A DNA stretch of 34,489 nt from CAYFZR01 sp046760505 [NCBI: Candidatus Hydrothermarchaeota archaeon] (GTDB lineage Archaea; CAYFZR01). The stretch is taken from assembly GCA_046760505.1 (NCBI GenBank), contig JBHIEG010000022.1:1-34489 (forward strand), in the 5' to 3' direction. Within the stretch, counting starts at the first letter, position 1; every line of letters starts with the position of its first letter. The translations under genes and the position numbers were made by a program. The notes below the pieces were generated by a model that was given only the letters and a program-made list of their open reading frames with translations, made no database searches and was not told the DNA's origin. This document shows positions 1-23,765 of this stretch, piece by piece.

Positions 1-1568
1 CCGCTTTAGCCATAATATTTAGCATATCCGGATTTACTCTTTTTAAATGGAAATTTCCCACTTTTGTAGATATTTATTATCATCTAAGCGTGATGCGCGG
101 CTTTGATATGGCAAATGGTATAGTACTTCATGATTTCTGGGAATTCGCTCCGGTAGGAAGACCACACCTATATCCTCCCCTAATTCACATAATAATGCTC
201 TTTCTCTACAGATTGGGCTTGGATGTCTTGACAATCGGTAAAATCATGAGTTTTTCTATGTTTCCTTTATCTTTGATAACTGTATGGTTTTTTATGCGAG
301 AGATTTTTGATACAAAGAGTGCATTCTACAGTGTTTTATTGCTATCCATCCCTTTTCAATGGTTTTGGAGTCAAACAACGACAAATGCGATTGCATTTGT
401 TTTAATACTAACTCCTTTGATATTCTATTTCATCGAAAAGGAGAAAAAGATCGCAAGCATTGTTTTGATGGTTTTTTCCCTCTATTCTCATTTAAGCATG
501 CCGCATATTATTACCATAGCACTGTTGATTTATGGATTTCATAGAAAAGAGAAGAGAAATATGATTCTTACTGTATTGGGTGTTTCATATCTGCTTTATC
601 TTCCCTGGGGATTACATATTCTTAAAAATTTGGATGTAATAAACCCGGGTGTAGGATCTCTTTTTTACGTTGAATTTCACATAATTTTATTACTGCTTGC
701 TCTTTTTGGAATTTACATTTGCTACAAAAACAAGGGAGAATACTACCTTTTATCGTCTCTTTTTTTCGCGATGCTCCTAATACTTTTGAGATATCCATTC
801 AGATTTTGTTTTCATGTGATTTTGCCCATGTCCATGCTTGGCGGTATTTCTATTGCAATGGTGCATGATAGAATAAGTGAAAATAGAATAATGAAAAAGA
901 TTGATGCAAGATATCTTGAAATTCTTCTCATGATATTCATCATATTTGCATTAAACCTCGGGAATTTTACACTATATACAACAGTGTTTGAAAACAAGTT
1001 AGAATTTACAGTAGAAGACACGACCATTTTTAAGGTAATGGATTATAGACCAAATGAAAAAATGGTGATTGGCTGGTTTATGAAGTATTTTGGAGAGATT
1101 ACCGATAAAGACGTTTTTAAACTAATAGAAATTGTAAGAGCCAATACTGAAGAGAATGATATAATATTCACTAATGAAGGAACATATGGTTGTTTTATAA
1201 CATCTTTTACCGGAAGAAGACAAACAGGAGCAATGTTCCGCGAATTTTTGCCAAAAGAGCAATTAGATTACTCATTCATAGATCTTGTTGTGCTACACAG
1301 GATAGGAGAAGAAGACTTTAAAAGAATATACGAAAAACTTGAACCAGGAAAGAGACCGCCTTCATTGATTTTTTTAGATAGAATAGATGATATAAAGGTA
1401 TATGGGGTAAAAAAAGAAGTCAAAAAGAGAAATTTTATGGCTCCTTCACCCGTAATATCTATCAACGCTGCCATGTTCTTATTTCTTCTAGGTATTTTGT
1501 TGATTTTTTTAGATGTCACGTCTCTCTCATCAAAATTATTATTAAAATGGGGATTGAAGACTAACTAA
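1..1568 (+). CDS. GT-C-like membrane glycosyltransferase (5' partial)
   Basis: The reading frame is open to the left window edge: codons from base 3 onward have no stop, so the GTG at 90 is internal and the true start lies outside. The visible part has a first extracytoplasmic loop with an aspartate followed by I-Y-Y-H-L, resembling the D-x-Y-Y-H-Y-R metal/lipid-binding loop of STT3/AglB, then GRPHLYPP, about ten membrane helices, and a soluble segment (roughly bases 1100-1430) before a final C-terminal helix. The last gene of the cluster (8039-10327) repeats both the D-x-Y-Y-H and GRPHLYPP motifs, so the two are paralogues. The STT3 WWDYG motif is not present, so I call it GT-C-like rather than an oligosaccharyltransferase. 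By family it probably uses a lipid-linked sugar at the outer membrane face. It is followed 10 bases later by another membrane glycosyltransferase. Confidence 0.7.
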   Translation, partial: ALAIIFSISGFTLFKWKFPTFVDIYYHLSVMRGFDMANGIVLHDFWEFAPVGRPHLYPPLIHIIMLFLYRLGLDVLTIGKIMSFSMFPLSLITVWFFMREIFDTKSAFYSVLLLSIPFQWFWSQTTTNAIAFVLILTPLIFYFIEKEKKIASIVLMVFSLYSHLSMPHIITIALLIYGFHRKEKRNMILTVLGVSYLLYLPWGLHILKNLDVINPGVGSLFYVEFHIILLLLALFGIYICYKNKGEYYLLSSLFFAMLLILLRYPFRFCFHVILPMSMLGGISIAMVHDRISENRIMKKIDARYLEILLMIFIIFALNLGNFTLYTTVFENKLEFTVEDTTIFKVMDYRPNEKMVIGWFMKYFGEITDKDVFKLIEIVRANTEENDIIFTNEGTYGCFITSFTGRRQTGAMFREFLPKEQLDYSFIDLVVLHRIGEEDFKRIYEKLEPGKRPPSLIFLDRIDDIKVYGVKKEVKKRNFMAPSPVISINAAMFLFLLGILLIFLDVTSLSSKLLLKWGLKTN

Positions 1569-1584
1569 GATTTAGGGTGTGAAC

Positions 1585-2943
1585 ATGAACATGGAAAAAG
1601 TGCAAACAGAGTTTTCAATTAAAAAGTTAATTGTCATATTTTTTTTAATTTTCACCATATTTACAAAAACTTACCCTAATTCATGGAACGATGCCTCAAG
1701 AATGAACACAATAGAATCATTGGTTGAGAGAGGAACCTTTATAATTGACAATTCGACATTTTTCAATATCGGTGCAGATAAAGTATTCATAAATGGACAT
1801 TTTTACTCAGATAAGCCTCCTGTACTTTCTTTTCTGGCATCTGGACTATATCTAATTTTGCATAAGTTTTTTAACTTATCATTCAATAGTAGTGATAGAA
1901 ATTCCCTTCCCTACTACTTATTAACTCTTTTTATATGCGGACTTAGTTCAGTTTTATTATCATTCTTTTTTTATAAGTCATTGAGTCTATTAGGTGTAGA
2001 AGAAAGATTAAAATATATATTGGTTGGAAGTTTGATCTTCGGCACGTTAGTATTTCCTTATACAACGGTATTTAACAATCATATAGTAGCTGCTTGTCTA
2101 CTTTTTATCAGCTTTTACTTATTGTTGAAAACTAAATTCTGTCAAAATGGATTTAAGGGGGAAATTTTTCTTACTAGTTTCCTTACAAGTTTAGCAGCCA
2201 CCATAGATATACCATCAGGGGGGATTTTTTTCATATCATTTCTATTTTATATCTTGGCTGATAACAAGTTAAGAAAACATGCATACATCTACCTTTCAGG
2301 TGCACTTATTCCTCTTTCACTCCACGCACTTTTAAACATTCAAATAACAGGAGATCTAAAACCAGCTTATCTACATCCCGAATATTTCAAATGGGAAGGC
2401 TCACCATGGCTAGAAGAAGAGTTTAAAGGTGTTATATCAGGAATTAAATTTAATCACGACCTACTATTTATTCTAAAGTATTCTTTTCACTGTCTGTTCG
2501 GATATAGGGGATTATTTTCATATAGCCCCATACTGCTCTTTTCTCTACCAATGTTTTTTAGAGCGATTAAAAATAATACTCAAAACTTAAGAAAAGAGAT
2601 ACTTATGATATTTCTCAGTTGTTTTCTTATCGTGTCTTTTTACGTTACCTTTTCTACAACCTACGGAGGTATGTGTTATGGAATGAGATTTTTCATACCC
2701 TTTACGCCACTAATTTTCTTTATTTCAGCTATTTATATCTGTGAGAGTTCTTCAGAACGACTATTAAAAATGTTTTATGTCTTTTTATCGATTTCACTTA
2801 TCATATCCCTCATAGGTGTTTATAATCCTTGGTCGGGCGGGGATTTTCCATTGTTGACAAATTTATCTCGAATTCTAAGGGTAAATAGGGAATTCATTCC
2901 GATTTTAAAGTATATTTTTGATTATATTAGAGATATTGTATAA
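1585..2943 (+). CDS. GT-C/GT39-like integral membrane glycosyltransferase
   Basis: About 452 residues with roughly ten hydrophobic helices and a short soluble tail. After the first helix comes an N-D-A-S-R segment and, near residue 75, the motif SDKPP, which resembles the D-K-P-P motif of GT39/ArnT-like and RgtA-D-like membrane glycosyltransferases. These use polyprenyl-phosphate sugars to decorate extracytoplasmic acceptors. A GTG at 1579 is also in frame, but it overlaps the AGGGTG ribosome binding site, so ATG 1585 (or 1591) is the better start. It lies 10 bases after the upstream GT-C gene and belongs to the glycan cluster. The donor and acceptor cannot be told from the sequence. Confidence 0.7.
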   Translation: MNMEKVQTEFSIKKLIVIFFLIFTIFTKTYPNSWNDASRMNTIESLVERGTFIIDNSTFFNIGADKVFINGHFYSDKPPVLSFLASGLYLILHKFFNLSFNSSDRNSLPYYLLTLFICGLSSVLLSFFFYKSLSLLGVEERLKYILVGSLIFGTLVFPYTTVFNNHIVAACLLFISFYLLLKTKFCQNGFKGEIFLTSFLTSLAATIDIPSGGIFFISFLFYILADNKLRKHAYIYLSGALIPLSLHALLNIQITGDLKPAYLHPEYFKWEGSPWLEEEFKGVISGIKFNHDLLFILKYSFHCLFGYRGLFSYSPILLFSLPMFFRAIKNNTQNLRKEILMIFLSCFLIVSFYVTFSTTYGGMCYGMRFFIPFTPLIFFISAIYICESSSERLLKMFYVFLSISLIISLIGVYNPWSGGDFPLLTNLSRILRVNREFIPILKYIFDYIRDIV

Positions 2944-2991: not shown

Positions 2992-3642
2992 ATGAACGCC
3001 AAAAATATAGCCATAATATTGCTTTTCGTTTTTTTAGTGGGCGCAGCTTATTTCATGCTCACTTCTGAAGAAGAAATATACAACGTAGAATTACTAATAA
3101 CGCCCTACCAGGAGCATTCGGAATTGCCCCCTAATTTAGGGAATATAAGGAATATAACTCAGATAGACGGGACTTTTTACTTGGATTTCAGGACTAAAAA
3201 TCCTAATTTCTATGATTTGCTCAAGAATATAGGATATATCAAAATCGCTTACGTATCTAGCCAAGGAGATCCTACCAAGAACATCAGAGATACGGTCAAA
3301 AACGCCAAAGAAGTTTACATCCTTTATGAAAGGTCTCAGGATGATTATGCTTACCAAAGAGTTGTCCAATCTGTAATCGAAACATCTCACGCAGTAGGAT
3401 TCGTCCATAAAGAAGATGTGGTTACAGCCAAGGAATACGGTTTGCTCTACAAGACTTTGTATCTATTGCATTACATAGGAAGGGAAGAGAAGCCAGTCAT
3501 TTTAATTAAAGATCCTAAAAAAACAGATAAAAATGTTATTGTTGTAAAAAAAGGAAGATCAATCGAAATAAATGCCAAAAATCCTGACGATTTATTTGAA
3601 GTTACGATGAATTTGAAACAAGTAATCGTCTCGGTGGTATGA
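2992..3642 (+). CDS. Membrane-anchored protein of unknown function in the glycan cluster
   Basis: I do not recognise a family with confidence. The 216-residue protein has one N-terminal hydrophobic helix (about residues 5-22) with a short charged start, giving a type II or signal-anchor topology, followed by an entirely soluble alpha/beta-looking domain facing the outside. The C-terminal third alternates short beta strands (VILIKDP, NVIVVKKG, SIEINAK) and ends in a helix, somewhat like small surface-layer-associated archaeal domains; that comparison is an impression only. No catalytic motif is visible. It has its own TATA box with leaderless spacing, and its stop overlaps the next gene's start as ATGA, so it is coupled to the GT4 glycosyltransferase. 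Confidence 0.6.
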   Translation: MNAKNIAIILLFVFLVGAAYFMLTSEEEIYNVELLITPYQEHSELPPNLGNIRNITQIDGTFYLDFRTKNPNFYDLLKNIGYIKIAYVSSQGDPTKNIRDTVKNAKEVYILYERSQDDYAYQRVVQSVIETSHAVGFVHKEDVVTAKEYGLLYKTLYLLHYIGREEKPVILIKDPKKTDKNVIVVKKGRSIEINAKNPDDLFEVTMNLKQVIVSVV

Positions 3643-4691
3643 TGAGGATATGCATGGTTGGTATGTTTCCTCCGCAGATAGGAGGAATATCAACTTATAA
3701 CTTTAATTTAACTAAAGAATTGAGAAGAAAAGGTCATCACGTAGAGATAATCTCGTACGAAAAAAACGATGAATTCATCACTCACAAGGCTTATCACATA
3801 AAAATACCGATTCTTAGAGGAATTACATTTTTCATCTCTGCACTAATTACTTTCTTAATTCTGAATAGGAAGAATAGATTTGATGTTATTCATGGACATT
3901 ATTTACTGCCAGCAGGATTGGTGGCGGTAGTTTCCAAAAAAATAGCAGGAACGAAGGCAGTAGTCATGACTTATGGTTCAGATATTCTTGTTTTGGGTAA
4001 AAAATGGTATTTAAGACCTATCTTAGCATGGATAATGAAATCTAGCGATTTAACAATTGTTTTAAGCAGAAAACTTAAAGAAGAAGCAATAAAGATGGGT
4101 ATAGAAGATTCAAAGATAAGATTGGCTCCTATAGCCATTGATGAAGAGTTATTTAATCCAAACATAGAGTCGAACATAAAGAAAGAATTTGGAATAAAAG
4201 GAGATGTGATACTCTTCGTTGGAGCCTTGGTTAAGCAAAAAGGTCTTGAATATCTCATCGAAGCATGCAATATTCTAAGAGAAAATCTTGAATTTACATT
4301 GATTGTGGTAGGAGATGGTCCATTAAGAAAAGAACTGGAGAAAAGATCTGAAGGACTAAACATCATATTTACTGGCTTCAGAAAAGACGTAAATAGGTTT
4401 ATGAAGGATGCCGATATTCTGGTGTTACCGTCAATCTCAGAGGGTCTTGGTTTCGTTGTTTTAGAGTCTATGGCAGTTGGAACCCCTGTTTTAGCAACTA
4501 AAGTAGGTGGGATACCAGAACTTATTGAGAACGGAAAAAATGGCGTGCTTGTAGAGCCTGGAGACCCTGTTGCTCTGGCAGATGGGATAAAAAAGTTACT
4601 CAAGGAAAAAGAATTTCGCGAAAAAATCATAAAGAGTGGTTTTTCAAAAATAAGAAGAGAAGATGTCTCTGCCATATATGGAGGTATCTGA
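3639..4691 (+). CDS. GT4-family glycosyltransferase
   Basis: A 350-residue cytoplasmic GT-B glycosyltransferase. The N-terminal domain opens with a beta strand and a glycine loop (MFPPQIGGIST, about residues 8-18) that binds the acceptor. The C-terminal domain has the GT4 nucleotide-sugar signature, with the E-X7-E pair at about E268 and E276 inside SEGLGFVVLE, followed by GTPVLATKVGGIPE. Such enzymes transfer a sugar from a nucleotide donor to a growing lipid-linked glycan on the inner membrane face. The start overlaps the upstream stop (ATGA), with GGTGGT just before it; ATG 3642 is equally possible. The protein ends slightly early compared with many GT4 enzymes, and the following membrane gene is in the same reading frame beyond one TGA. 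Confidence 0.9.
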   Translation: MMRICMVGMFPPQIGGISTYNFNLTKELRRKGHHVEIISYEKNDEFITHKAYHIKIPILRGITFFISALITFLILNRKNRFDVIHGHYLLPAGLVAVVSKKIAGTKAVVMTYGSDILVLGKKWYLRPILAWIMKSSDLTIVLSRKLKEEAIKMGIEDSKIRLAPIAIDEELFNPNIESNIKKEFGIKGDVILFVGALVKQKGLEYLIEACNILRENLEFTLIVVGDGPLRKELEKRSEGLNIIFTGFRKDVNRFMKDADILVLPSISEGLGFVVLESMAVGTPVLATKVGGIPELIENGKNGVLVEPGDPVALADGIKKLLKEKEFREKIIKSGFSKIRREDVSAIYGGI

Positions 4692-4703: not shown

Positions 4704-6086
4704 TTGATATTGCTGATGCTATTCGTGGGCATAATTCGAGTTATACCTAATATGAACGGCATCGCTGGACTAGATACCTATTTACATCTCACAATATGTG
4801 ATCTTGTATACAAGGGATTACTTATTCAGAGAGATCTTCTTAGCATCTTTGGATTAAGGGCATATGGTTATCCAACGGGATTTCATTCTCTTTTATCTTC
4901 CCTCTCTTATCTTTCCAATACACATCTAAATACGTTATTTATAATAATTCCATCTGTGCTCTCTTCTATTATAGCGGCTACATTTTTTTTATTTTCTAAG
5001 TCCTTTAATCTAACGGATAAAGAGGCTTTTCTTTCTACACTTCTTTTTACTACTGCTCCATCGTTTGTTCAGAGGAGTTCATACTCTATACCGGAAATAG
5101 TCGGTATACTGTTCTTTTTACTCTCACTATCTTTCCTCTTAAGATGGAATGAAAAAAAAGATAGAAAAATGATTTTTTTATTCCTTTTGGTCTTTTTCGC
5201 ATATGCTTTAACCCACAGAGGAATATTTTTTCTCTTAATTGTTATGTTCATATTCTTTCTAGTTTATTTCAGGGAGGAGGTAAAGAGATATTCCATTCTT
5301 ATTTTTTTTGCAATATTAATACTCATTTTAAGCGGCATAGGTATAGATTTGGTCCAAAGAATCCCATGGGAACCGGTTACCGCTAAGGGTTTTATTTTAT
5401 CATTAGGTCCTATCCTATTTTTCCTCGGTATTATAGGTATTTTTAATGCATTCGAAAGAAGAGAAAAAAGGGATATATTTCTTTTATCGTGGATAGTCGC
5501 ATTTGGATTGATAGGAACGATGAGTTTTAGATTCAGGGACCCCTATCTTGCTATACCTTTCTCTTTGATTATTAATCCGGTAAGAAAAGACTATCTAAGG
5601 ATACTGATACCCATAGTAATAATCGTTGGGGCAATACAATCCTTTTATGTTATAGAAAATGGCTTATACCGATTAGATAAACCAACAAAATACAGTCTAT
5701 CGTTTTTGCAAGAGAACAGCGATCAGAACTCCGTTGTATTGACATGGAGGATAGAAGGATACTGGATAAATGGGCTGGCAAAAAGGAGAGATATAATAAT
5801 ATGGAATAAATTTTATCAGGGTTTTTTTAATAAACCACCGTCTTATAAAGAATCTCTGGAAAAATATAAAGATGTTGAGGAGATATTTAGAACAATTAAC
5901 TCTAGCAGATCATTTGAACTCATGGAGAAGTACAATGTCTCATACATATATTTTTCTAGGGATATGCTTAACATGGATACCTTGGAATATGGTTTGATAG
6001 AATATATAGATAAAAATGAAAGGTTTTCTCAAATATACGCGAATCCTATGGCTAGAGTTTATAAGGTGGATTTGAATGAGGCCTGA
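4704..6086 (+). CDS. STT3/GT-C-like membrane protein
   Basis: A 460-residue protein with about ten helices and a C-terminal soluble domain from about residue 330. The first loop has D-T-Y-L-H-L and a later G-Y-P-T-G-F-H, paralogous to D-x-Y-Y-H and GRPHLYPP in the genes at 1 and 8039. At the start of the soluble domain V-V-L-T-W-R-I-E-G-Y-W-I sits where STT3 carries WWDYG, so it looks like a distant or divergent STT3 relative; that is inference. The start is uncertain. TTG 4704 is the first usual start codon but lies 18 bases beyond the strong GGAGGT at 4680-4685. A CTG at 4692 has ideal spacing and would add a positively charged L-K-R-N before the first helix. The 3' end overlaps the next gene by 11 bases. 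Confidence 0.65.
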   Translation: MILLMLFVGIIRVIPNMNGIAGLDTYLHLTICDLVYKGLLIQRDLLSIFGLRAYGYPTGFHSLLSSLSYLSNTHLNTLFIIIPSVLSSIIAATFFLFSKSFNLTDKEAFLSTLLFTTAPSFVQRSSYSIPEIVGILFFLLSLSFLLRWNEKKDRKMIFLFLLVFFAYALTHRGIFFLLIVMFIFFLVYFREEVKRYSILIFFAILILILSGIGIDLVQRIPWEPVTAKGFILSLGPILFFLGIIGIFNAFERREKRDIFLLSWIVAFGLIGTMSFRFRDPYLAIPFSLIINPVRKDYLRILIPIVIIVGAIQSFYVIENGLYRLDKPTKYSLSFLQENSDQNSVVLTWRIEGYWINGLAKRRDIIIWNKFYQGFFNKPPSYKESLEKYKDVEEIFRTINSSRSFELMEKYNVSYIYFSRDMLNMDTLEYGLIEYIDKNERFSQIYANPMARVYKVDLNEA

Positions 6087-7233
6087 AATTATATTTTTTA
6101 CGGTTCAAACTCTCTATTTTTTGGGTGCATTTATCGGTTTTTTGAATCCGAAGACTAGATACTTACTCGAAATAGGTTTTGAAGGCTTTCCTTATAAAGC
6201 CATTATTTTCCTGCTCTTAGGTGCAATATTCTTTTGTATTGGATCTCTTCTCGCGGATAAGAAAGGAACGATTCATGAATGGAAAAAATCAATCAAAGTT
6301 TTATTTTTATTGTTCTTATTTTTGATTTCTTTATCACTTATTAAGTTTGTATTGAAATTTACCATGCTACAGTCTTTTGGATTGGCTTTGATTACAGTAA
6401 TTTCTGTTTTTTCCTTCCTAGAAATTCTGCCAAGATATCCCTATGAGACATGCCTTTCATATTCTATAACAGGTATAGGTTTTCTACTTTTGAATTTCTT
6501 TTACATAGGAGGAATTCCTTTTTTTAACCCGCTTCTGAAAGGATATACTCAAAATTTAATATGGGGTATTGGTTTCATCTTTAGTTTACTTGGGAGCATA
6601 TTCTGTTTGAAACTTTGGAAGAACAAATCACAAATGATTTTGAGTTACTTTTTAAGCGTTATAGTAATTATTTTATTGGCATTATCAGCATACAGATCAC
6701 AGTTCCTAGTATTTGTATTTGCGATTTTTTTTGTATTCGATAGGAAGCCCTATCTTAAATTATTATTTTTGACGTTGTTCTCGCTGGCTGTTTTCTTATC
6801 ACTTACCAAGTTGACGAGTGATCTGGATTTATCTATGGTGGAGATATTGTTCTACAGACTAGGTTTTTCACTGAGTGTTTTGGAGAATATCATAGATCTA
6901 GGGATATTTGGTGTAACGCATGGAAAACTCTGGTTTTTGAAAGAGCCAAGGGTCCTTTTGGGAGAGATGGCACTCGGGTATAGTCATAATACCACCGCCA
7001 CAATACTAGGCACTCTTTGGTTGGACGGCGGTCTGATAGAATCTATTTTGTTTATGACAGCAATTGGCTTCCTTTGTAGAATGCTCTATGAACTTAGAGA
7101 AAGTGATTTACTCTCTCCTTTGTATGCGATTTCAATCTCGCAGGTTCTTGTATGGATTGAGATAGGGCCTGATCTCTACTCATTAATTCCGATAATTCTC
7201 TCTGCTCTCTCGATTAAGTGGTGGAAGAAATGA
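6076..7233 (+). CDS. O-antigen/oligosaccharide repeat polymerase-like membrane protein
   Basis: A 385-residue protein, hydrophobic nearly throughout, with about eleven helices. One larger loop in the last third contains Y-S-H-N-T-T-A-T followed by L-W-L-D-G-G, resembling the H-N...P-t...G pattern of Wzy/O-antigen ligase-like oligosaccharide polymerases. A conserved-looking arginine pair (A-Y-R-S-Q-F) precedes the central loop, also typical of that group. By family it would join lipid-linked repeat units outside the membrane. Start ATG 6076 is preceded by GGTGGA at a spacing of five and overlaps the upstream gene by 11 bases; the 3' end overlaps the next start as ATGA. The family assignment is moderate, because such proteins diverge quickly and I rely on topology, loop motif and neighbourhood. 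Confidence 0.6.
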   Translation: MRPEIIFFTVQTLYFLGAFIGFLNPKTRYLLEIGFEGFPYKAIIFLLLGAIFFCIGSLLADKKGTIHEWKKSIKVLFLLFLFLISLSLIKFVLKFTMLQSFGLALITVISVFSFLEILPRYPYETCLSYSITGIGFLLLNFFYIGGIPFFNPLLKGYTQNLIWGIGFIFSLLGSIFCLKLWKNKSQMILSYFLSVIVIILLALSAYRSQFLVFVFAIFFVFDRKPYLKLLFLTLFSLAVFLSLTKLTSDLDLSMVEILFYRLGFSLSVLENIIDLGIFGVTHGKLWFLKEPRVLLGEMALGYSHNTTATILGTLWLDGGLIESILFMTAIGFLCRMLYELRESDLLSPLYAISISQVLVWIEIGPDLYSLIPIILSALSIKWWKK

Positions 7234-8105
7234 TAAATCCCGTCATATCTTTTCTGGTCACGATTCTCCTAACTCCACTGTGGATAAAATATGCGAAGAG
7301 AGCAGGAATAATAGGAACAGACCTGCATAAAGAGGAAAAAAAAGAAGTAGCGGAGATGGGTGGAATACCTATTTTAGCAGGTCTTTTTTCTGGTGTTTTT
7401 CTAAGTTTTGATTACGAATTGCTCCCAATCGCCCTCTACCTAATTTCAGTATCATTTCTCGGGATCACAGACGATCTCCTGAAATTTGACAAGGTAGAAA
7501 AAATCATTTTACCAGGCATACCAGCGCTAATTTTGGGTTTCAAAAATCCTCTTCTGATGCCTTATTTGTTTATAACATCTTCAGTAGTTTTAAACTGGAC
7601 AAATATGCTTGCGGGTTTGAACGGTCTTGAATCAGGACTTGGAATTTTACTGCTGGCATCTTTCTCCATAATATCTTTTCTTACTAAAAATACTGGCGCA
7701 TTCCTTTTATCCTCTTGCATGATGGCCTCTCTCCTTGCATTTTTATACTACAACAGGTATCCAAGCAGGATATTCCCGGGCGACTGTGGAACCATGCTTA
7801 TAGGGGCGGTTTTCTTTTCTGTAGTTTATTTGACAAAAGTTGTAATTCCGGCTTTCATAGTACTCATTCCCTATTTGATGGATTCTGCTCTAAAGTTCCT
7901 CTCAGCAGGCATAATGAGAAGGGAGGAGAAAAAGCCAACTAAAATAAAGGATGGTTTGTTATATTCAGCGGGAGATTACAATTCCCTCATAAGGGTAATC
8001 ATAAGTATAAGACCGATGAGTGAGAAGAAGGTGGTATATTGTATATGGATGATTCAAACAGTCTTTTCTCTTTTAGGAATTCTATCCTTCTTATTGTTAT
8101 ATTAA
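7230..8105 (+). CDS. Dolichyl/polyprenyl-phosphate GlcNAc-1-phosphate transferase (MraY/WecA/ALG7 family)
   Basis: A membrane enzyme that moves a sugar-1-phosphate, typically GlcNAc-1-P, from a UDP-sugar to a polyprenyl or dolichyl phosphate, the first committed step of lipid-linked glycan assembly. Family landmarks are all visible: E-M-G-G-I-P in the first cytoplasmic loop, G-I-T-D-D in the second (metal-binding aspartates), N-W-T-N-M-L-A-G-L-N-G-L-E in the third, and F-P-G-D-C-G-T in the fourth, on a background of about ten helices. Upstream in-frame GTGs (7218, 7221) overlap the GGTGG binding site, whereas ATG 7230 has correct spacing and makes a typical ATGA overlap with the preceding stop. 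Its last 67 bases overlap the next gene. It is the likely priming enzyme for the glycan built by this cluster. Confidence 0.88.
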   Translation: MINPVISFLVTILLTPLWIKYAKRAGIIGTDLHKEEKKEVAEMGGIPILAGLFSGVFLSFDYELLPIALYLISVSFLGITDDLLKFDKVEKIILPGIPALILGFKNPLLMPYLFITSSVVLNWTNMLAGLNGLESGLGILLLASFSIISFLTKNTGAFLLSSCMMASLLAFLYYNRYPSRIFPGDCGTMLIGAVFFSVVYLTKVVIPAFIVLIPYLMDSALKFLSAGIMRREEKKPTKIKDGLLYSAGDYNSLIRVIISIRPMSEKKVVYCIWMIQTVFSLLGILSFLLLY

Positions 8106-10327
8106 CAATATCAATTTCATCTTTTTCTCTGCTTCAAAAATTTCCAATTGGTTACGATAGTTACTATCATATGAGAATAGCCAATGAAGTTTCAAACGGA
8201 AGTTTAATACAATACGATTATAGGAGTGCTGCTCCCCATGGAAGGCCACATTTGTATCCTCCAGCATTTCATATTCTATCTGCTGATTTGTTATTGCTTT
8301 CTGAATTAGATATAATTAACATATTCAGGATATTGCCAATGGCATTCCTTATTTTATCGTCTTTATCTTTTTGGATATTTGTAAAAAATATGTATAATGA
8401 AAAGATAGCCTCATATGCAACCGTATTATTTTTACTTTCTCCTACCTATGTTATAAGAGGATTAACGCCTACCCCAGAGAGTTTGGGAATAGCATTGATT
8501 CCATTGATTCTTTTTTTATCGCTGAGAAATTCTTTCATTTTGACTACTCTTTTTTTAGGATTTCTGGGAATTTTAAGTTCTTTTTCATTTATTGTAGGAG
8601 TAATATGCGTTCTAATATTTTCTAGAAGGAGGTTGCTTATTATAATCGGTTCGCTTTTGTTATCCTCCCCTTTCTGGTATACCTTACTCCATTACTATTT
8701 GAATGGATATGAAATACACCCATTCTTATCTTACACAAATTTAATATACTACCCAAAAAGGCTTGGATATGTTCAGACATTTTTGTCGCTCTTAAGCCTT
8801 TCATTTGATCCTTTAACCCTTTTCGCTTCTATAATCTTTATTCTATCTCAAAGCCATCACTTTTTCACGATTACATCAGATAGATTCGTTACTTTTCTAG
8901 CCATACCTCTAGGCGTGCTCGCTGGTAGAAAGATTGCAGGGATTAAAGATAGGATTGAGATAAAAAATGAAAGAATCTACATCAGAAAAGAAATCGTCAT
9001 GCTTCTTCTATTAACAATCGTTCTGGCGCAAGCCTTATTCTTCTTAAGTGAGACGAAAGCTTCGCTCTCTAACCATGAACTGAATTCATACGAATTCCTC
9101 TCTACCTTACCAAAAAATTCGATAGTTTTATCTGAATGGCAGGTTGCACCAAAGATATTATTTTTCTCTCATGTAAGAAGCGTAAAGGGAGCTTTTGGAT
9201 ACAGTATAGCAGACTTGGAAGAAAGAAACAGAGATGTCAAACAAATGTTAAAGGGAAACAAAAGTCTCCTGAAAAAATATCGGATAAATGACATATACAT
9301 CTCAAATAAAGAAAGAAAAGAGGGATTCAATGAAGAATTTTTCAAATCTAGCGTTTCAAAGGTATACGATGGCATAGATATCTCTATATACGAATACTTT
9401 CCGGTTAAGGTAAAGGTATGGAGCTGGCCCAATGCGAAAAAAGGCGCATTTACCATATTTTGTGATGACGTATCCCCTCATTACAGTTTTGATTGTCTGA
9501 ATAAATTCTTATCCACGGTAAACGAAAAGGGAGGAAAAGTCGATTTATTCGTAATACCAAACCACATGGGTAAATATAAGATTACAGAAGCAAGTTCAGA
9601 ATGGAAAGAATACGTAAAGAGAGCTTCAATTAAAAATGAACTGGGATTGCACGGATTTTACCATAACGAGAGAAAATGCGACTGTTACTGGGAAAAAGAT
9701 TATGAAGAACAGAAGAAGAATATAATGGAAGGAATAAAATTGTTTAACATGGCTTTTGACAAAAAACCAAGAGGATTTCGGCCGCCGGGATGGAAGTACA
9801 ATGAGGATACCATATCCGTTCTGAGAGATCTAAACTTTACGTATTCCGCTTCTACTTGGTATTATGGAAAGAATATGAGTTTTACTGATAAAATATTTCC
9901 ATACTGGCGCGAAAATATTCTAGAAATTCCTTCAACAACAGGAGATTACTTATGGGAATTTAAAATGGATGAAAAAAATGCATTAGAGAGATTTGAAGAA
10001 GTATACGCTAAGAACGGATTGTACAGTATGCAGGTTCACCTTCAGTATTCCTGCAACGAAGAAGGTTTACGCCTAATTTCTAGCATCTTGGAAAAGGCAA
10101 AAAAGAGGGATATGTGGATTACCTTGCCAAAGGAAATCGCTGAATTTTATATTCTGAGGAAAAATGTACACATAGATTATAGCATGGTTGGAGATATATT
10201 AACAATCGATATTGAGAACGGCAACGATATCGATGTCAAGGGATTAACTTTAATGATAGGTAACGAGACAGTAGTATTGGATCTAAAGCCAAAGGAAATA
10301 AAAAAATACAGGTTAAAACTCGGATAG
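8039..10327 (+). CDS. Fusion of GT-C-like membrane domain and NodB-type polysaccharide deacetylase
   Basis: A 762-residue two-part protein. Residues about 1-330 are a multi-helix GT-C-like domain with Y-D-S-Y-Y-H-M and GRPHLYPP, paralogous to the gene at window start; residues about 340-450 are a small soluble domain. Residues about 460-690 form a carbohydrate esterase 4 (NodB) domain with a full catalytic set: D476-D477 in F-C-D-D-V, H538-x3-H542 for metal, R581 in R-P-P-G-W, and H667 in Q-V-H-L-Q. A short beta-rich tail follows. By topology the deacetylase should lie outside the membrane. A plausible job is to deacetylate amino sugars of the glycan that the cluster makes, possibly on the same carrier used by the GT-C half. 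Start may be TTG 8039 or ATG 8045, both after GGTGGT. The 3' end overlaps rfcL tail to tail by 15 bases. Confidence 0.8.
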   Translation: MYMDDSNSLFSFRNSILLIVILTISISSFSLLQKFPIGYDSYYHMRIANEVSNGSLIQYDYRSAAPHGRPHLYPPAFHILSADLLLLSELDIINIFRILPMAFLILSSLSFWIFVKNMYNEKIASYATVLFLLSPTYVIRGLTPTPESLGIALIPLILFLSLRNSFILTTLFLGFLGILSSFSFIVGVICVLIFSRRRLLIIIGSLLLSSPFWYTLLHYYLNGYEIHPFLSYTNLIYYPKRLGYVQTFLSLLSLSFDPLTLFASIIFILSQSHHFFTITSDRFVTFLAIPLGVLAGRKIAGIKDRIEIKNERIYIRKEIVMLLLLTIVLAQALFFLSETKASLSNHELNSYEFLSTLPKNSIVLSEWQVAPKILFFSHVRSVKGAFGYSIADLEERNRDVKQMLKGNKSLLKKYRINDIYISNKERKEGFNEEFFKSSVSKVYDGIDISIYEYFPVKVKVWSWPNAKKGAFTIFCDDVSPHYSFDCLNKFLSTVNEKGGKVDLFVIPNHMGKYKITEASSEWKEYVKRASIKNELGLHGFYHNERKCDCYWEKDYEEQKKNIMEGIKLFNMAFDKKPRGFRPPGWKYNEDTISVLRDLNFTYSASTWYYGKNMSFTDKIFPYWRENILEIPSTTGDYLWEFKMDEKNALERFEEVYAKNGLYSMQVHLQYSCNEEGLRLISSILEKAKKRDMWITLPKEIAEFYILRKNVHIDYSMVGDILTIDIENGNDIDVKGLTLMIGNETVVLDLKPKEIKKYRLKLG

Positions 10328-11587
10328 AGAACTTTGTTTCTTTCTTGACTTTCTTTTCTTCCCCTTAGTTCCATCTGTCTGATAATCACCAATAAGGAAG
10401 TTAACTTCTTCTTCGTCGAATTCGAAGAATCTTATTAAATCTTCGGGATTTTTATTGTTTTTTAGAATGGTTTTAAGGAAAGGTATCTCCATTGAAGCGA
10501 GTTTTGAAGACTTATGGGTCTTTGCTCCTATCTTTGTGGCTATTCTCTTCGTCATCTCCCTTTCTTTTTTTGTTCTCGAGAGACTATAGAATATACTTGG
10601 ACGTTTATACCGGGTGAATTTTTTGTACGGAGAATTCTTTGCTGAAGAAACTCCACAAGAAATAAGATCGCTTACATAACCGAGAAAACCCCAGTATTGT
10701 CTCCTAATTATCCTTCCCATGAACACGTCTCCCCTCGATATGTATTCATAGGCATCTCTTATTTCCTCTGAATTTTCGTATTCTTCTGGTATATTGCTGG
10801 CTATCCATTCAATCAACAATTTAGGATCCTCGCTAGAATCCAAAATTGCTTTTCTAGCGGTATCAATTCTCCTAGATTTAAATATCTTGCTTAATGTATT
10901 GAATACGGATTCTTCCCTGTCCCTGGAGCTTAATGTTTCAAGGTCTTCCTGAGTGATCTTTTTTCTACCCTGAGAAATGGACTGAAGGTCATTTATTGCA
11001 GACCGCAAATCACCTTCGTTCATCTTGGCAATTATTTCGAGAATCTTCTTTTCAAATTCAATTCCCTGATCTTTGCATATCTTTTCCAGAATTTTTACTA
11101 TGGTAGAAGAATGAATCTTCTTAAACTCTACGGATTTGCAATAGCTTTTTAAAGTTCTAAGCTGGGTTGCATAAGGATCGTTTGCTATCAGTATTATTGG
11201 ATTTCTTGTATCTTTTATGATTTCAATGATTCCTTTTACTCCTCCTCTGTCCTCTCTTCCTGTGATGCCATCGATCTCATCGAGCAAGATTAGCCTTTTC
11301 TCTCCCCTGTTTAATGTAGATGTTTGAGATGCTGGACCGACTATCTCCTTTATAATCTTATATGATCTCTGATCAGATGCATTCAGTTCAATAAAATCGT
11401 AGCCCAAATCGTTTGCAATAGCTCTTGCAAGAGATGTTTTTCCTGTTCCAGGAGGTCCGTATAACAATAAAGCCTTGTATTTGCCTTTTTTCCATGAATC
11501 TATCCATTCTTCTACTTCCTTTATAGCCTTTGGGTTTCCAAGAACCTCTTTTACACTTTTTGGCCTGTAATCTTCAGTCCAGAGCAT
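10313..11587 (-). CDS. rfcL: Replication factor C large subunit
   Basis: The clamp-loader large subunit, an AAA+ ATPase that with RFC small subunits opens and loads the PCNA ring on primed DNA. Visible features in order are the N-terminal W-T-E-D-Y-R-P motif (RFC box), Walker A G-P-P-G-T-G-K-T (about residues 44-51), Walker B L-I-L-L-D-E-I-D, sensor N-D-P-Y, a helical collar, and a lysine-rich tail ending Q-S-S-L-S-E-F. That last stretch fits the QxxLxxF PCNA-interacting (PIP) box expected at the extreme C terminus of archaeal RfcL. ATG 11587 is chosen because GTGAT lies five bases before it; an in-frame TTG at 11593 is less likely. The start overlaps the end of the upstream V4R gene. No small-subunit gene is in the window. 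Confidence 0.95.
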   Translation of the reverse strand: MLWTEDYRPKSVKEVLGNPKAIKEVEEWIDSWKKGKYKALLLYGPPGTGKTSLARAIANDLGYDFIELNASDQRSYKIIKEIVGPASQTSTLNRGEKRLILLDEIDGITGREDRGGVKGIIEIIKDTRNPIILIANDPYATQLRTLKSYCKSVEFKKIHSSTIVKILEKICKDQGIEFEKKILEIIAKMNEGDLRSAINDLQSISQGRKKITQEDLETLSSRDREESVFNTLSKIFKSRRIDTARKAILDSSEDPKLLIEWIASNIPEEYENSEEIRDAYEYISRGDVFMGRIIRRQYWGFLGYVSDLISCGVSSAKNSPYKKFTRYKRPSIFYSLSRTKKEREMTKRIATKIGAKTHKSSKLASMEIPFLKTILKNNKNPEDLIRFFEFDEEEVNFLIGDYQTDGTKGKKRKSRKKQSSLSEF

Positions 11588-12986
11588 GATCAATCACGAA
11601 TTCACAGTAGTCGTTACCCATTGATACGCACTTCGTTTCTTTAAAGCCTGAGCACCTTATTCCTAGTGTTTCAAAGTAGGCTGTCAGGTAGTGACCGATC
11701 CAGAAGCAATAAGGAGTGCCCAAGTTTATTCTTTTCTTAAATCCTGCATCCAGATAACACTCATGAACACGATATTTAGCGTATTCTTTAGAAATATCAA
11801 CTATTTCAAACCTTCCAAGACCAAGTCTTTCCATTATATAGATTAAATCATTTGCAGCTTTTTTTATGTCCTTTGCGCCAGAAAATTTTCCCGAAGCAAT
11901 TCCAATTGTTCTTGCAGAAGATTTCAATGTCTTCCCTGCTCCAACCCCCTTGAATTCCATTATTAATGCAAGTCCAAGCGCATGTATTAGATGCATCATT
12001 GCCATATCTCCCATTTCTCTGATTTCTTTACCTTCTAGGAAAGAGGTTAGATCTCTGATTAGAATTTCCTCTATTTTCTTGGATACGTCTTCCCAGTCAA
12101 CCTCAACTCTAGTCCTTTCTTTTCTTTCGCGAGTATAGATAACGAACTCATCATAAGGATCGCCCATGGCCTCGCATTTTACCTCTGAAAAGCCAGATAC
12201 ATCGATTTTTGCACTCTTTAGAGCTGAAAGAAGGTATTCACCTATCCAAGTGCAGTAGGGAAAGTCCAAAACCAAATTAGAGTACAAACCCGTACTCAGA
12301 TAGGAATCATATACTCTATAAACTATCTTTTCATCTGAATACTCTATCAACTCAAGGCGGCATATTCCCAGTCTTTCGGATATATCTGATAGTTCTTTGG
12401 ATATGCCCTCCAGATCATCTGCGCTAACACTTTCTCCTGCTGCACCTCCAATTATGTGAGAAGATATCTTCAGGATGTCCCCCACATTCTTTCCCTTGTA
12501 ATCATGGATCAGGGATATACCCAACGTATGGATGAAGTGCATCGATGTTTTGTCTCCCATTTCCCTTATCTTTTCTCCCTTTATGTACCTCTTAATCTGA
12601 TTTTTTATGATGCTGAGTAGTTTATGGGAAAAGATATACCAGTCCACCACATATGGCTTAGATATGGGTATCAGATTTTCATCAATGTCGAGTAATGAAT
12701 TTTGTTTCTCAGAATACACTTTTTTGAGTACTTCAAGCAATTCATCGTCGGATTGTATGCCTATTATCACCTCTTGCCCTATATATGTGGTTGGGGCTTT
12801 CCTTACGCCATATTTTTCTGCTACCCATGGATTTTCTACCGCGTCTACTGAATAGAGTTCTAATGGGATATTTGCATCTTCTGCAACTCCTATCAATAAG
12901 GTTGCCAGAAATTCGCAGTAAACGCATGTCGGAGTGGTAAACATTATCGATTTTACCGTATACATGTCGTTCTTTTCCATTACCAT
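11574..12986 (-). CDS. Thioredoxin-fold protein fused to two V4R domains
   Basis: A 470-residue cytoplasmic protein of unusual architecture. Residues about 10-95 are a thioredoxin/glutaredoxin-like fold with the redox motif C-V-Y-C (near residues 21-24) and a cis-proline loop K-A-P-T-T. Two tandem V4R (4-vinyl reductase-like) domains follow, at roughly 115-285 and 300-470. Each contains E-M-G-D near its start, a Y-C-x-W-I-G segment and a K-C-x-x-M-G segment. The second copy has the fuller cysteine set (E-C-Y-L-D-A-G, Y-C-F-W-I-G, R-C-S-G, K-C-V-S-M-G and Y-C-E-F), while the first has lost two of these positions. V4R domains bind small hydrophobic ligands or metal in XylR/DmpR and BchJ; the substrate here is unknown. 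It probably shares a transcript with rfcL, whose start overlaps its end. Confidence 0.8.
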   Translation of the reverse strand: MVMEKNDMYTVKSIMFTTPTCVYCEFLATLLIGVAEDANIPLELYSVDAVENPWVAEKYGVRKAPTTYIGQEVIIGIQSDDELLEVLKKVYSEKQNSLLDIDENLIPISKPYVVDWYIFSHKLLSIIKNQIKRYIKGEKIREMGDKTSMHFIHTLGISLIHDYKGKNVGDILKISSHIIGGAAGESVSADDLEGISKELSDISERLGICRLELIEYSDEKIVYRVYDSYLSTGLYSNLVLDFPYCTWIGEYLLSALKSAKIDVSGFSEVKCEAMGDPYDEFVIYTRERKERTRVEVDWEDVSKKIEEILIRDLTSFLEGKEIREMGDMAMMHLIHALGLALIMEFKGVGAGKTLKSSARTIGIASGKFSGAKDIKKAANDLIYIMERLGLGRFEIVDISKEYAKYRVHECYLDAGFKKRINLGTPYCFWIGHYLTAYFETLGIRCSGFKETKCVSMGNDYCEFVIDHALD

Positions 12987-21003: not shown

Positions 21004-22143
21004 TCATTTGTAAAAGGCAAGAGTATTGTTTCCCTCCAATTCTGTTGTTCCAATGAACAAACTTCCATTGGAGATCGCTGGACTTGAAAATAAACGGCCA
21101 TTTGTCTTGAATTTCCATTTTAACTGCCCGCTTTTAGCATCTAGCGCATACAAATAGTGATCATCTGATCCAATGTATACTACACCAGATTTAAAGTATC
21201 CTTTTCCCCTAGAAACCACCGGACTTGAGTATATGCGGCCTCCAGTCTCGTATTCCCATTTAAGCTTCCCGGTATTGGCGTCTAACGCATATACGTGGTT
21301 GTCCCAAGATCCAACATAGACAATACCATCATAGACCGCGGGACTTGATTTCACATCATCTCTTGTCTCATATTTCCATATTAATTCTCCACTTTTTGCG
21401 TCTAAAGCATATAGGTAATTGTCATCAGATCCAACATAAACAATATCATTATAAATCGCGGGACTTGATTCTACGTCTCCTAAGGTTCTAAATTTCCATA
21501 TTAATTCTCCACTTTTTGCGTCTAAAGCATATAGGTAATTGTCATCAGATCCAACATAAACAATATCGTTATAAATCGCGGGACTTGATTTCACGCGAGA
21601 ATTTGTCTTCGATTTCCATATTAACTCTCCACTTTTTGCGTCTAAAGCATACAAACAACCATCGAGGGCTCCAACGTAAACTATTCCCTCCCGAGGTGAA
21701 GGACTGGAGTAATACAGTGGAACACCGGTCCCATATTTCCATATTAACTCTCCACTTTTTGCATCCAAAGCGTAGATGTAGCTGTCCCAAGATCCAACAT
21801 AGACAATACCATTATAAACAGCGGGACTGGAGTATACTCTGTCTCCGGTTTTAAATTTCCATATTAACTCTCCACTTTTTGCATCCAAAGCGTAGATGTA
21901 GCTGTCCCAAGATCCAACATAGACAATACCATTATAAACAGCGGGACTGGAGTATACTCTGTCTCCGGTTTTAAAACTCCACTTGAGTTTTAGGGGCGGT
22001 TCTAAATTTTCTGAAGTTACGCCTGAGTGCTGAACATCATGTCTAAACATTGGCCAATTTTCATTAATTGATTTTTCAGATTTAAGACAGTCCACATTAA
22101 ATAAAATCAGAATTAAAACCGCCATGAGGATGTATTTCCTCAT
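21004..22143 (-). CDS. Secreted PQQ-like beta-propeller repeat protein
   Basis: About 379 residues. An N-terminal signal peptide (residues 1-20, charged start then L-I-L-I-L-F) ends near a cysteine, but the N-V-D-C context is not a good lipobox. The rest is a run of 40-residue PQQ/BamB-like blades. The core Y-A-L-D-A-x-x-G-x-L-x-W occurs seven times, with a split eighth blade closed by the first and last strands, suggesting an eight-bladed propeller. Such propellers are usually surface or periplasmic scaffolds, and the PQQ-ligand residues of dehydrogenases are not evident. Blades are nearly identical at the DNA level, pointing to recent expansion. ATG 22143 is chosen, since GGTGGTGA lies just before it and upstream GTGs overlap that site. 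The binding site is inside a hairpin. Confidence 0.85.
   Translation of the reverse strand: MRKYILMAVLILILFNVDCLKSEKSINENWPMFRHDVQHSGVTSENLEPPLKLKWSFKTGDRVYSSPAVYNGIVYVGSWDSYIYALDAKSGELIWKFKTGDRVYSSPAVYNGIVYVGSWDSYIYALDAKSGELIWKYGTGVPLYYSSPSPREGIVYVGALDGCLYALDAKSGELIWKSKTNSRVKSSPAIYNDIVYVGSDDNYLYALDAKSGELIWKFRTLGDVESSPAIYNDIVYVGSDDNYLYALDAKSGELIWKYETRDDVKSSPAVYDGIVYVGSWDNHVYALDANTGKLKWEYETGGRIYSSPVVSRGKGYFKSGVVYIGSDDHYLYALDAKSGQLKWKFKTNGRLFSSPAISNGSLFIGTTELEGNNTLAFYK
21735..21975. repeat. Perfect 120-bp tandem duplication inside the beta-propeller gene
   Basis: Bases 21735-21855 are identical to 21855-21975, a period of 120 (one 40-residue blade). A second pair of blades around 21375-21590 is also nearly identical, with a single base difference over about 95 bases. 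The remaining blades are more diverged. This is the signature of recent unequal recombination or gene conversion. Confidence 0.9.
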
Positions 22144-22148
22144 TTTCA

Positions 22149-22168
22149 CCACCTTTTAATAAAGGTGG
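22149..22168 (-). promoter_or_regulatory. Hairpin that sequesters the ribosome binding site of the beta-propeller gene
   Basis: In the minus-strand message, CCACCTTT is followed by the loop ATTA and by AAAGGTGG, a perfect eight-base-pair stem. The 3' arm is the Shine-Dalgarno region of the gene, ending five bases before its ATG (22143). Folding would hide the binding site. It could act as a thermosensor or be opened by a protein or by the ribosome. Confidence 0.55.
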
Positions 22169-23764: not shown

Positions 23765-23765
23765 A

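What the first reader, a model, noticed from the sequence alone, without database searches (positions are those of the whole stretch)
8039..10327. Glycosyltransferase-like membrane domain fused to a complete NodB deacetylase
The sequence shows one open frame with a GT-C-like N-terminal half (D-x-Y-Y-H and GRPHLYPP loop motifs) and a C-terminal carbohydrate esterase 4 domain with all expected catalytic positions (D476, D477, H538, H542, R581, H667). CE4 enzymes are known to remove N-acetyl groups from sugars in several polymers. I know of no described enzyme with this pairing. If both halves work, a sugar could be transferred and deacetylated at the outer membrane face by one polypeptide, next to the enzyme that starts the lipid-linked glycan.
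Basis: partly seen in the sequence, partly recalled or inferred. Interest (0 to 1): 0.75.

Follow-up and report, generated by a model that had tools for sequence, protein, structure and literature searches.

The report
Archaeal sugar-transfer enzyme fused to deacetylase
A methanogen-like archaeon carries one protein that joins a membrane sugar-transferase to a sugar-deacetylase with its key catalytic residues in place, inside a surface-sugar gene cluster; the pairing is real, but a broader archaeal family has the same layout with the deacetylase part worn out.

Summary
One open frame (8039-10327, likely ATG start 8045) carries a PMT/STT3-type (GT-C) membrane half, a soluble domain, a NodB/CE4 barrel (DUF2334, E 2.9e-19; all six named catalytic residues present) and a C-terminal beta domain. 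It closes a + strand cluster with an O-antigen-polymerase-like protein, a MraY/WecA-like transferase, a GT4 and two related GT-C proteins. It is most likely a surface-glycan enzyme: the GT-C half transfers a lipid-linked sugar and the CE4 half removes an N-acetyl group. Location, activity and substrate are inferred.

The layout is not unique. 18 of 392 sampled genomes of the nearest phylum encode 1,014-1,271 aa proteins with the same order of parts. In all 19 read (these 18 plus one) the catalytic Arg and general-acid His are replaced, so their barrel is probably inactive. Intact relatives of the CE4 half exist as separate anchored proteins in another archaeal phylum. No other intact GT-C+CE4 fusion was seen, but only some archaea could be searched. 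The one published CE4-glycosyltransferase fusion that I found has a GT2. Verdict: real, a new variant of a known kind.

The parts
8045..10327 (+). Fusion gene (760 aa from ATG 8045; 762 aa from TTG 8039): GT-C membrane half + soluble domain + NodB/CE4 + C-terminal beta domain
8030..8035 (+). GGTGGT, possible Shine-Dalgarno 9 nt upstream of ATG 8045
   Evidence: my reading of the sequence
8039..9049 (+). GT-C-like membrane half, residues 1-337; 7 to 9 hydrophobic segments depending on threshold; first-loop motifs D40xYYH and GRPHLYPP
9071..9403 (+). Soluble domain, residues about 345-455, between the membrane part and the barrel; aligned by eye with the end of neighbour g5
   Evidence: boundaries are my reading; no family match
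9452..10060 (+). NodB/CE4 barrel (DUF2334 match residues 472-674), with D476, D477, H538, H542, R581, D636, H667
10136..10324 (+). C-terminal domain, residues about 700-762, shared with stand-alone relatives and with the large family; probably beta
   Evidence: strands also in the low-confidence model
7218..8105 (+). MraY/WecA-like polyprenyl-phosphate sugar-phosphate transferase (PF00953), overlaps the fusion by 61 nt
6076..7233 (+). Putative O-antigen polymerase (PF01901, E 1.8e-34)
4704..6086 (+). g5: GT-C paralogue of the fusion's membrane half (GLDTYLH ... YGYPTGFH); PMT_2 match just under cut-off
3639..4691 (+). GT4-family glycosyltransferase
2992..3642 (+). 216-aa protein with one N-terminal hydrophobic segment, no family match
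1579..2943 (+). Membrane protein, LA_3751/LA_3752-type putative glycosyltransferase (E 4.1e-17, below cut-off)
3..1568 (+). g1: second GT-C paralogue, frame open to the left window edge; carries DIYYH and the identical GRPHLYPP

Best explanation
A two-domain surface-glycan enzyme of an archaeon. The GT-C half takes a sugar from a polyprenyl-phosphate carrier on the outer face of the cytoplasmic membrane and adds it to a glycan or glycolipid made by the neighbouring initiator, GT4 and polymerase. The CE4 half, on the same side, removes the N-acetyl group from an N-acetyl amino sugar by metal-dependent hydrolysis (D477, H538, H542 as metal ligands, D476 as base, H667 as acid), leaving a free, positively charged amine. 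Shown by sequence: the frame, the domain order, the catalytic residue set and the cluster. Inferred: outer-face location (from anchored stand-alone relatives and the GT-C loop), both activities, the donor, the substrate, and whether the deacetylated sugar is the one that the GT-C half adds.
For: Domain matches. Catalytic set complete and shared with 4 stand-alone relatives. Of 39 distinct PDB sequences matched by the C-half profile at E up to 0.1, I count 30 whose molecule name says deacetylase; best 3rxz E 6e-20. Same-strand cluster with four overlapping gene pairs among the eight ORFs (3639/3642, 6076/6086, 7218/7233, 8045/8105). Two GT-C paralogues in the cluster, neither with a CE4 match. 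One N-terminal hydrophobic segment on 4 of 4 full-length intact stand-alone relatives. Same order of parts in a wider family; in 9 of 18 loci of that family a separate NodB-like protein lies within 8 kb. A predicted archaeal pathway of pfam01901 polymerase plus PMT-family transferases is in print (PMC5898192, two sections read). The nearest NCBIfam model to the C-half is a glycolipid GlcNAc deacetylase; removal of N-acetyl from glycolipids by GpgD and HexD is reported in PMC12713373 and PMC10128005 (passages read).
Against: No activity data. CE4 motif 4 (DxxD(W/Y)) is only partly kept (D636xxW639), motif 2 has Gly for Ser/Thr, motif 3 has RPPG for RxPY, motif 5 has MQVHL for LxHD. The profile also matches PuuE allantoinase, so the reaction need not be sugar deacetylation. 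The GT-C half's own family matches are weak. The large relatives have lost catalysis (19 of 19), so the barrel can serve without it. Location is not settled: other NodB relatives show no hydrophobic segment (for example L185, L186; several), and GpgD is predicted cytoplasmic in PMC12713373. Structure models were too poor to use (mean pLDDT 41.1 and 43.0).
Confidence: 0.55

Rival explanations
1. The GT-C half is active, but the CE4 half is a substrate-binding or scaffolding domain on its way to loss, as in the large family. It positions the glycan and no longer hydrolyses it.
For: 19 of 19 large relatives lack the catalytic Arg and His; the motif variants listed above; 6 of the 10 relatives in alignment A1 have lost the DD pair and HxxxH.
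Against: All six named catalytic residues and D636/W639 are kept here, as in the 4 intact stand-alone relatives and unlike the 19 large relatives.
Confidence: 0.2
2. The CE4-superfamily half performs another hydrolysis (for example ArnD-like deformylation of a lipid-linked sugar, or an amide that is not N-acetyl), so the product is not a free GlcN/GalN.
For: The profile matches ArnD (8t0j, E 0.0045) and PuuE allantoinase (3cl6, E 2.9e-11) as well as deacetylases. Pfam describes DUF2334 as uncharacterized.
Against: 30 of the 39 matched PDB sequences are named as deacetylases by my count. The nearest NCBIfam model is a GlcNAc-lipid deacetylase, though far below its cut-off.
Confidence: 0.15
3. 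The two halves are active but unrelated in reaction: the GT-C domain is mainly a membrane anchor that keeps the deacetylase next to the glycan export and polymerisation site, replacing the single anchor of the stand-alone relatives.
For: The 4 intact stand-alone relatives have a single hydrophobic anchor; both halves exist apart in other archaea.
Against: The GT-C motifs D40xYYH and GRPHLYPP are kept, the second identical to that of the neighbouring paralogue, which suggests a working transferase.
Confidence: 0.08
4. Assembly or annotation artefact: two neighbouring genes joined by an error.
For: No intact orthologue found; single contig; no read data available.
Against: The join lies between complete domains in one frame, and the same order of parts recurs in 19 other proteins.
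Confidence: 0.02

Closest known systems
Unnamed archaeal GT-C + NodB-like proteins of 1,014-1,271 aa (18 of 392 genomes of the phylum of G001)
   Same: N-terminal GT-C with a GxDx[YF]xH motif (18 of 19 proteins read), second half of a NodB-like barrel, and the same C-terminal domain (profile comparison of one pair: probability 98.0, E 2.5e-13 for the C part; 93.3, E 2.7e-7 for the N part when the fusion is joined by g1 and g5)
   Different: 9-12 hydrophobic segments, more sequence between membrane part and barrel (about 260 residues in L121), catalytic Arg and His gone in 19 of 19; the fusion's N part alone gives only probability 13.3 against them, and the soluble middle domain gives no support
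Stand-alone DUF2334 NodB + C-terminal-domain proteins in the phylum of G009 (L175-L178)
   Same: Match to residues 458 to 738-760 with the same catalytic set
   Different: Single N-terminal hydrophobic segment in place of a GT-C; separate genes
GpgD / HexD glycolipid deacetylases (GpgSDF in P. aeruginosa, HexSDF in C. difficile; PMC12713373, PMC10128005, passages read)
   Same: Reported to remove N-acetyl from sugars on lipids; GpgD-type is the nearest NCBIfam model to this domain
   Different: Stand-alone proteins partnered with a GT4-type or MGDG-synthase-like transferase and an AglD2/MprF-like flippase; GpgD predicted cytoplasmic; score here 35.7 against a cut-off of 280
MatB of Streptomyces (CE4 + GT2; PMC4391728, passages read)
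   Same: One polypeptide with a NodB deacetylase and a glycosyltransferase in a locus needed for mycelial pellets
   Different: Opposite order of parts, GT2 of the PgaC/IcaA type, bacterial
Archaeal pfam01901 polymerase + PMT-family transferase clusters (arCOG03206, arCOG00563/00566; PMC5898192, sections 3.4 and 3.7 read)
   Same: O-antigen-polymerase-like gene with PMT-family genes
   Different: No CE4 fusion described in the sections read; the 216-aa gene here could not be tied to arCOG03414
Archaeal oligosaccharyltransferase AglB/STT3
   Same: Weak GT-C superfamily kinship
   Different: WWDYG motif (recalled) absent from the sequence; match far below the family cut-off (16.9 against 450 bits)

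Membership tests
CE4 / NodB homology domain (motifs as given in PMC5855634, passages read) | Motif 1 TFDD: base and metal-binding Asp | tested here: met
   IFCDD, D476 and D477; the preceding letters differ
CE4 / NodB homology domain (motifs as given in PMC5855634, passages read) | Motif 2 H(S/T)xxH: two metal-binding His | tested here: met
   H538 and H542 present, as HGFYH; the Ser/Thr is Gly
CE4 / NodB homology domain (motifs as given in PMC5855634, passages read) | Motif 3 RxPY | tested here: inconclusive
   R581-P-P583 present, Tyr replaced by Gly (RPPGW)
CE4 / NodB homology domain (motifs as given in PMC5855634, passages read) | Motif 4 DxxD(W/Y) | tested here: inconclusive
   D636xxW639, invariant in the 11-row alignment A1, but not the canonical pattern
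CE4 / NodB homology domain (motifs as given in PMC5855634, passages read) | Motif 5: general-acid His | tested here: met
   H667 in MQVHL
DUF2334 (PF10096) | Score over the curated cut-off | tested here: met
   69.9 bits against 26
N-acetylglucosaminyl phosphatidylglycerol deacetylase (NF053788) | Score over the curated cut-off | tested here: not met
   35.7 bits against 280
GT-C glycosyltransferase | Polytopic membrane domain with an acidic motif in the first outer loop (feature recalled) | tested here: met
   7-9 hydrophobic segments; D40xYYH follows the first; topology not shown
GT-C glycosyltransferase | Match to a curated GT-C family over cut-off | tested here: not met
   None for the fusion itself; relatives match PMT_2 (3 of 9) and PTPS_related (1 of 9)
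GT-C glycosyltransferase | Transfer from a polyprenyl-phosphate-linked sugar | not testable with these tools
   needs biochemistry
Oligosaccharyltransferase STT3/AglB | WWDYG motif (recalled) and family score | tested here: not met
   motif absent (sequence); 16.9 bits against 450
Large GT-C + NodB-like archaeal family | Same order of parts with homologous N and C ends | tested here: met
   clear for the C part, for the N part only when g1 and g5 are added
Large GT-C + NodB-like archaeal family | Length 1,014-1,271 aa and catalytically degenerate barrel | tested here: not met
   760-762 aa, intact residues

The most novel reading that the evidence does not exclude
A self-contained transfer-and-deacetylate enzyme at the archaeal cell surface: the GT-C half adds an N-acetyl amino sugar and the tethered CE4 half removes its acetyl group, so that the polymer leaves with free amines. 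The large relatives then keep a dead copy of the same deacetylase as a glycan-binding domain, with a separate NodB-like gene in the cluster in half of the loci read (9 of 18), and this window holds the working version of the architecture.
Probability: 0.3. Interest if true: 0.65.

Novelty: new variant of a known kind. Interest (0 to 1): 0.47.

Why it matters
Free amino sugars change the charge of a cell surface. An intact GT-C + CE4 protein gives one gene in which transfer and deacetylation can be tested together in an archaeal glycan pathway. It also draws attention to a broader, unnamed archaeal family whose C-terminal barrel looks like a dead deacetylase, a layout that a Pfam scan does not show (4 of the 19 large proteins were scanned; no deacetylase match at E up to 0.05). 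An active and a dead version of one architecture are useful for asking what the domain does when it no longer catalyses.

Tried and rejected
Orthologues by direct scan: the fusion as query found none in genome contigs (the patterns were taken from poorly conserved stretches, so the empty result is weak). The window's own genome is not held, so taxonomy is indirect. A ThrRS tree of 76 of 81 rows (80 loci plus the window; loci without a ThrRS alignment over 500 residues were dropped) puts the window on a long lone branch beside Methanolliviera and the L010/L005/L029 group, without starred support and with a long-branch warning. The seven best RfcL matches by E-value (43-45% identity) lie in the class of G003, but genomes outside it also reach 44%.

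Searches for the same fusion with the fusion as query (the sets overlap): 7 of 14 chosen genomes had a match, 38 of 294 genomes of the phylum of G001, 5 of 11 in the class of G003, 18 of 23 in the phylum of G009, 0 of 5 in the class of G005, 13 of 196 in the phylum of G010 at E up to 1e-5. No listed row spanned both halves. The C-half profile A1 matched 152 of 392 genomes of the phylum of G001, but the list was cut off; of 12 regions fetched from it only the G200 protein already known had a polytopic N-part. Other archaeal phyla could not be reached, so an intact fusion elsewhere is not excluded.

Assembly artefact was considered and rejected as unlikely (see rivals). STT3/AglB membership was rejected. 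Filing as a GlcNAc-PG deacetylase was rejected on score. Plasmid search: 67 records; the 20 listed match in the C-half only. Viral contigs: no relative of the C-half (24 stretches matched a pattern, none confirmed). PHROGs: no match for three of the window's proteins. Structure prediction without an alignment failed (mean pLDDT 41.1 and 43.0), so no fold search was run. Text searches (mostly listings seen) found no description of a GT-C + CE4 pairing in the held open-access papers; most subscription papers are not held.

The idea that the layout tracks with the MraY-like transferase was tested on the large relatives: 3 of 18 loci had a match to the window's protein in the stretch fetched (17 of the 18 genomes plus G013; G283 left out as a 5.5-kb contig; stretches of 12-20 kb, some cut by contig ends). 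It does not clearly track.

Hydrophobic segments come from a simple hydropathy scan; E-values of BLAST and profile comparisons made in scripts are for small local sets.
Full report
What is there. ORF 8039-10327 on the + strand is one frame of 762 codons from TTG. I read ATG 8045 as the likelier start because GGTGGT lies at 8030-8035. Pfam finds DUF2334 at residues 472-674 (E 2.9e-19) and Polysacc_deac_1 at 485-602 (E 4e-10), both over cut-off; a Glyco_hydro_57 match at 7.5e-5 also passes its cut-off and covers 553-604. The N-half has no family match over cut-off. Its kinship is shown through neighbours and relatives: it matches the frame that runs off the left edge of the window (g1; 33% over 138 aa, E 8e-18; DIYYH and the identical GRPHLYPP) and ORF 4704-6086 (g5; 34% over 115 aa, E 9e-10), E-values for a set of three sequences. 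Of 9 members of its alignment A2, 3 match PMT_2 and 1 matches PTPS_related, the fusion itself neither, and the A2 profile's only PDB matches at E up to 1 are STT3A chains at E 0.022-0.024.

Surroundings. The cluster on the + strand is: GT-C paralogue (open at the window edge, to 1568), putative glycosyltransferase 1579-2943, 216-aa protein 2992-3642, GT4 3639-4691, GT-C paralogue 4704-6086, O-antigen polymerase family 6076-7233 (PF01901, E 1.8e-34), MraY/WecA-like transferase 7218-8105 (PF00953, E 1.6e-21), fusion. Four neighbouring pairs overlap, the last by 61 nt if ATG 8045 is the start. The next genes, on the other strand, are replication factor C large subunit (named from its sequence) and a redox-type regulator. 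The rest of the window has a methanogenesis marker 14 gene, an archaeal ThrRS, SMC, a ScpA-like and a ScpB gene, so the source is a methanogen-like archaeon; its genome is not held.

Relatives of each half. With the fusion as query, the N-half matches membrane proteins in open frames of 338 to 880 aa and the C-half matches separate proteins. In the class of G003, nearest by RfcL, 5 of 11 genomes have a 335-336 aa GT-C relative in a conserved gene neighbourhood and the fusion was not found in any. In the phylum of G009, 18 of 23 genomes match; the four best hits (E 1e-26 to 3e-16) are 372-379 aa proteins with one N-terminal hydrophobic segment that align from residue 458 to 738-760 and keep D, D, H, H, R, H. 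In the same 11-row alignment six other relatives have lost the DD pair and HxxxH. Not all NodB relatives are anchored: L185 (241 aa) and L186 (375 aa) and most of those read show no hydrophobic segment. Beside one intact stand-alone copy (L177) lie a MatE/MurJ-type flippase, an LPG_synthase_TM protein and a GT4, the last two on the opposite strand.

A wider family with the same layout. Five ORFs of 1,128-1,259 aa found begin with a GT-C signature (GTDx[YF]TH, then YPFG) and end like the fusion. Profile comparison gives probability 98.0, E 2.5e-13 for the C part (fusion residues 576-760), and 96.0, E 4.7e-9 when four stand-alone relatives are added. For the N part it gives 93.3, E 2.7e-7 when g1 and g5 are added to the fusion; the fusion's N part alone gives only 13.3, and the soluble middle domain gives no support (0.6 and 2.6) (each a comparison of one pair). 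A profile of the C ends (A4) matched 31 of 392 genomes at E up to 1e-8, 18 of them in open frames of over 1,000 aa. I read 19 such proteins (these 18 plus one from G013): all have 9-12 hydrophobic segments in the first 520 residues and 18 of 19 have the GxDx[YF]xH motif; the exception starts at a contig end. In the alignment none of the 19 has Arg at the position of R581 or His at that of H667. The first half of their barrel aligns poorly, so the motif 1 and motif 2 columns there are not reliable. I take the barrel as catalytically dead. In 18 loci around these genes (17 of the 18 genomes plus G013), a separate NodB-like protein of 439-535 aa lies within 8 kb in 9 (8 by profile A1, 1 by A4), and a MraY-like match in 3. 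Five of these nine NodB-like proteins were scanned; 4 of 5 match Polysacc_deac_1, below cut-off. In the one locus scanned more fully (G200) the neighbours are a polysaccharide flippase, a FemAB/GNAT protein, a hexapeptide protein, a NodB-like protein without a Pfam match and DUF354.

How it most likely works. Shown: the parts, their order, the residues and the cluster. Inferred: the GT-C half uses a polyprenyl-phosphate-linked sugar on the outer face; the CE4 half, judged to be on the same side from the anchored stand-alone relatives, deacetylates an amino sugar of the same glycan. Against the CE4 motifs listed in PMC5855634 (passages read) motifs 1, 2 and 5 keep their catalytic residues, motifs 3 and 4 are variant. 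PMC12713373 and PMC10128005 (passages read) report GpgD and HexD as needed to remove N-acetyl groups from glycolipids; NF053788 (GlcNAc-PG deacetylase) is the nearest NCBIfam model though far below cut-off, and GpgD is predicted cytoplasmic, which does not favour the outer-face placing by analogy. PMC5898192 (sections 3.4 and 3.7 read) predicts an archaeal glycan pathway with pfam01901 polymerases and PMT-family transferases and notes a polysaccharide deacetylase beside a glycosyltransferase and an UPF0104 family gene in Methanosarcina acetivorans.

Known or new. A GT2 + CE4 fusion is in print (MatB, PMC4391728, passages read). I found no report of GT-C + CE4. The layout itself is not unique to this window, but an intact catalytic set in it was seen only here among the proteins read. 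I therefore class it as a new variant of a known kind.

Limits. Structure models were unusable. Only the phyla of G001, G009 and G010 were sampled. Hydrophobic segments come from a simple hydropathy scan, not a topology program. Search and family results show similarity, not function.

Noticed in passing
11574-12986 (-): A 470-aa protein joins an N-terminal thioredoxin/glutaredoxin-like domain (Thioredoxin_3 E 3.3e-6, residues 16-86) to a C-terminal MsvR/V4R redox-sensor region (NF053755 E 3.4e-12, best stretch 329-464). The MsvR model is 236 positions long, so this looks like a fused redox regulator (scanned without its first codon).
   Followed up: no
3-1568 (+): A second GT-C protein with DIYYH and the identical GRPHLYPP motif opens the cluster and runs off the left edge of the window; with 4704-6086 the cluster has three paralogous GT-C halves, only one with a CE4 part.
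   Followed up: yes
L288-L305: In 11 of 18 loci of the large family a 472-526 aa protein with 9-13 hydrophobic segments lies near the family gene, convergent with it in 9 and on the same strand in 2. The G200 copy matches Polysacc_synt_3; the G110 copy has no Pfam match at E up to 0.01.
   Followed up: partly
L177:8000-13332: An intact stand-alone relative of the CE4 half lies near a MatE/MurJ-type flippase, an LPG_synthase_TM protein and a GT4, a set that recalls the GpgSDF trio, but on two strands.
   Followed up: partly
L151-L155: In five genomes of the class of G003 a 163-179 aa protein with one hydrophobic segment, a 335-336 aa GT-C and a 609-614 aa protein with 11-13 hydrophobic segments (cut by a contig end to 452 aa in L152) form a conserved trio.
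   Followed up: no
23120-23773 (-): A 217-aa thymidylate synthase relative covers only profile positions 93-220 of 266.
   Followed up: no
21004-22152 (-): A 382-aa PQQ/BamB-type beta-propeller repeat protein with an N-terminal hydrophobic segment.
   Followed up: no
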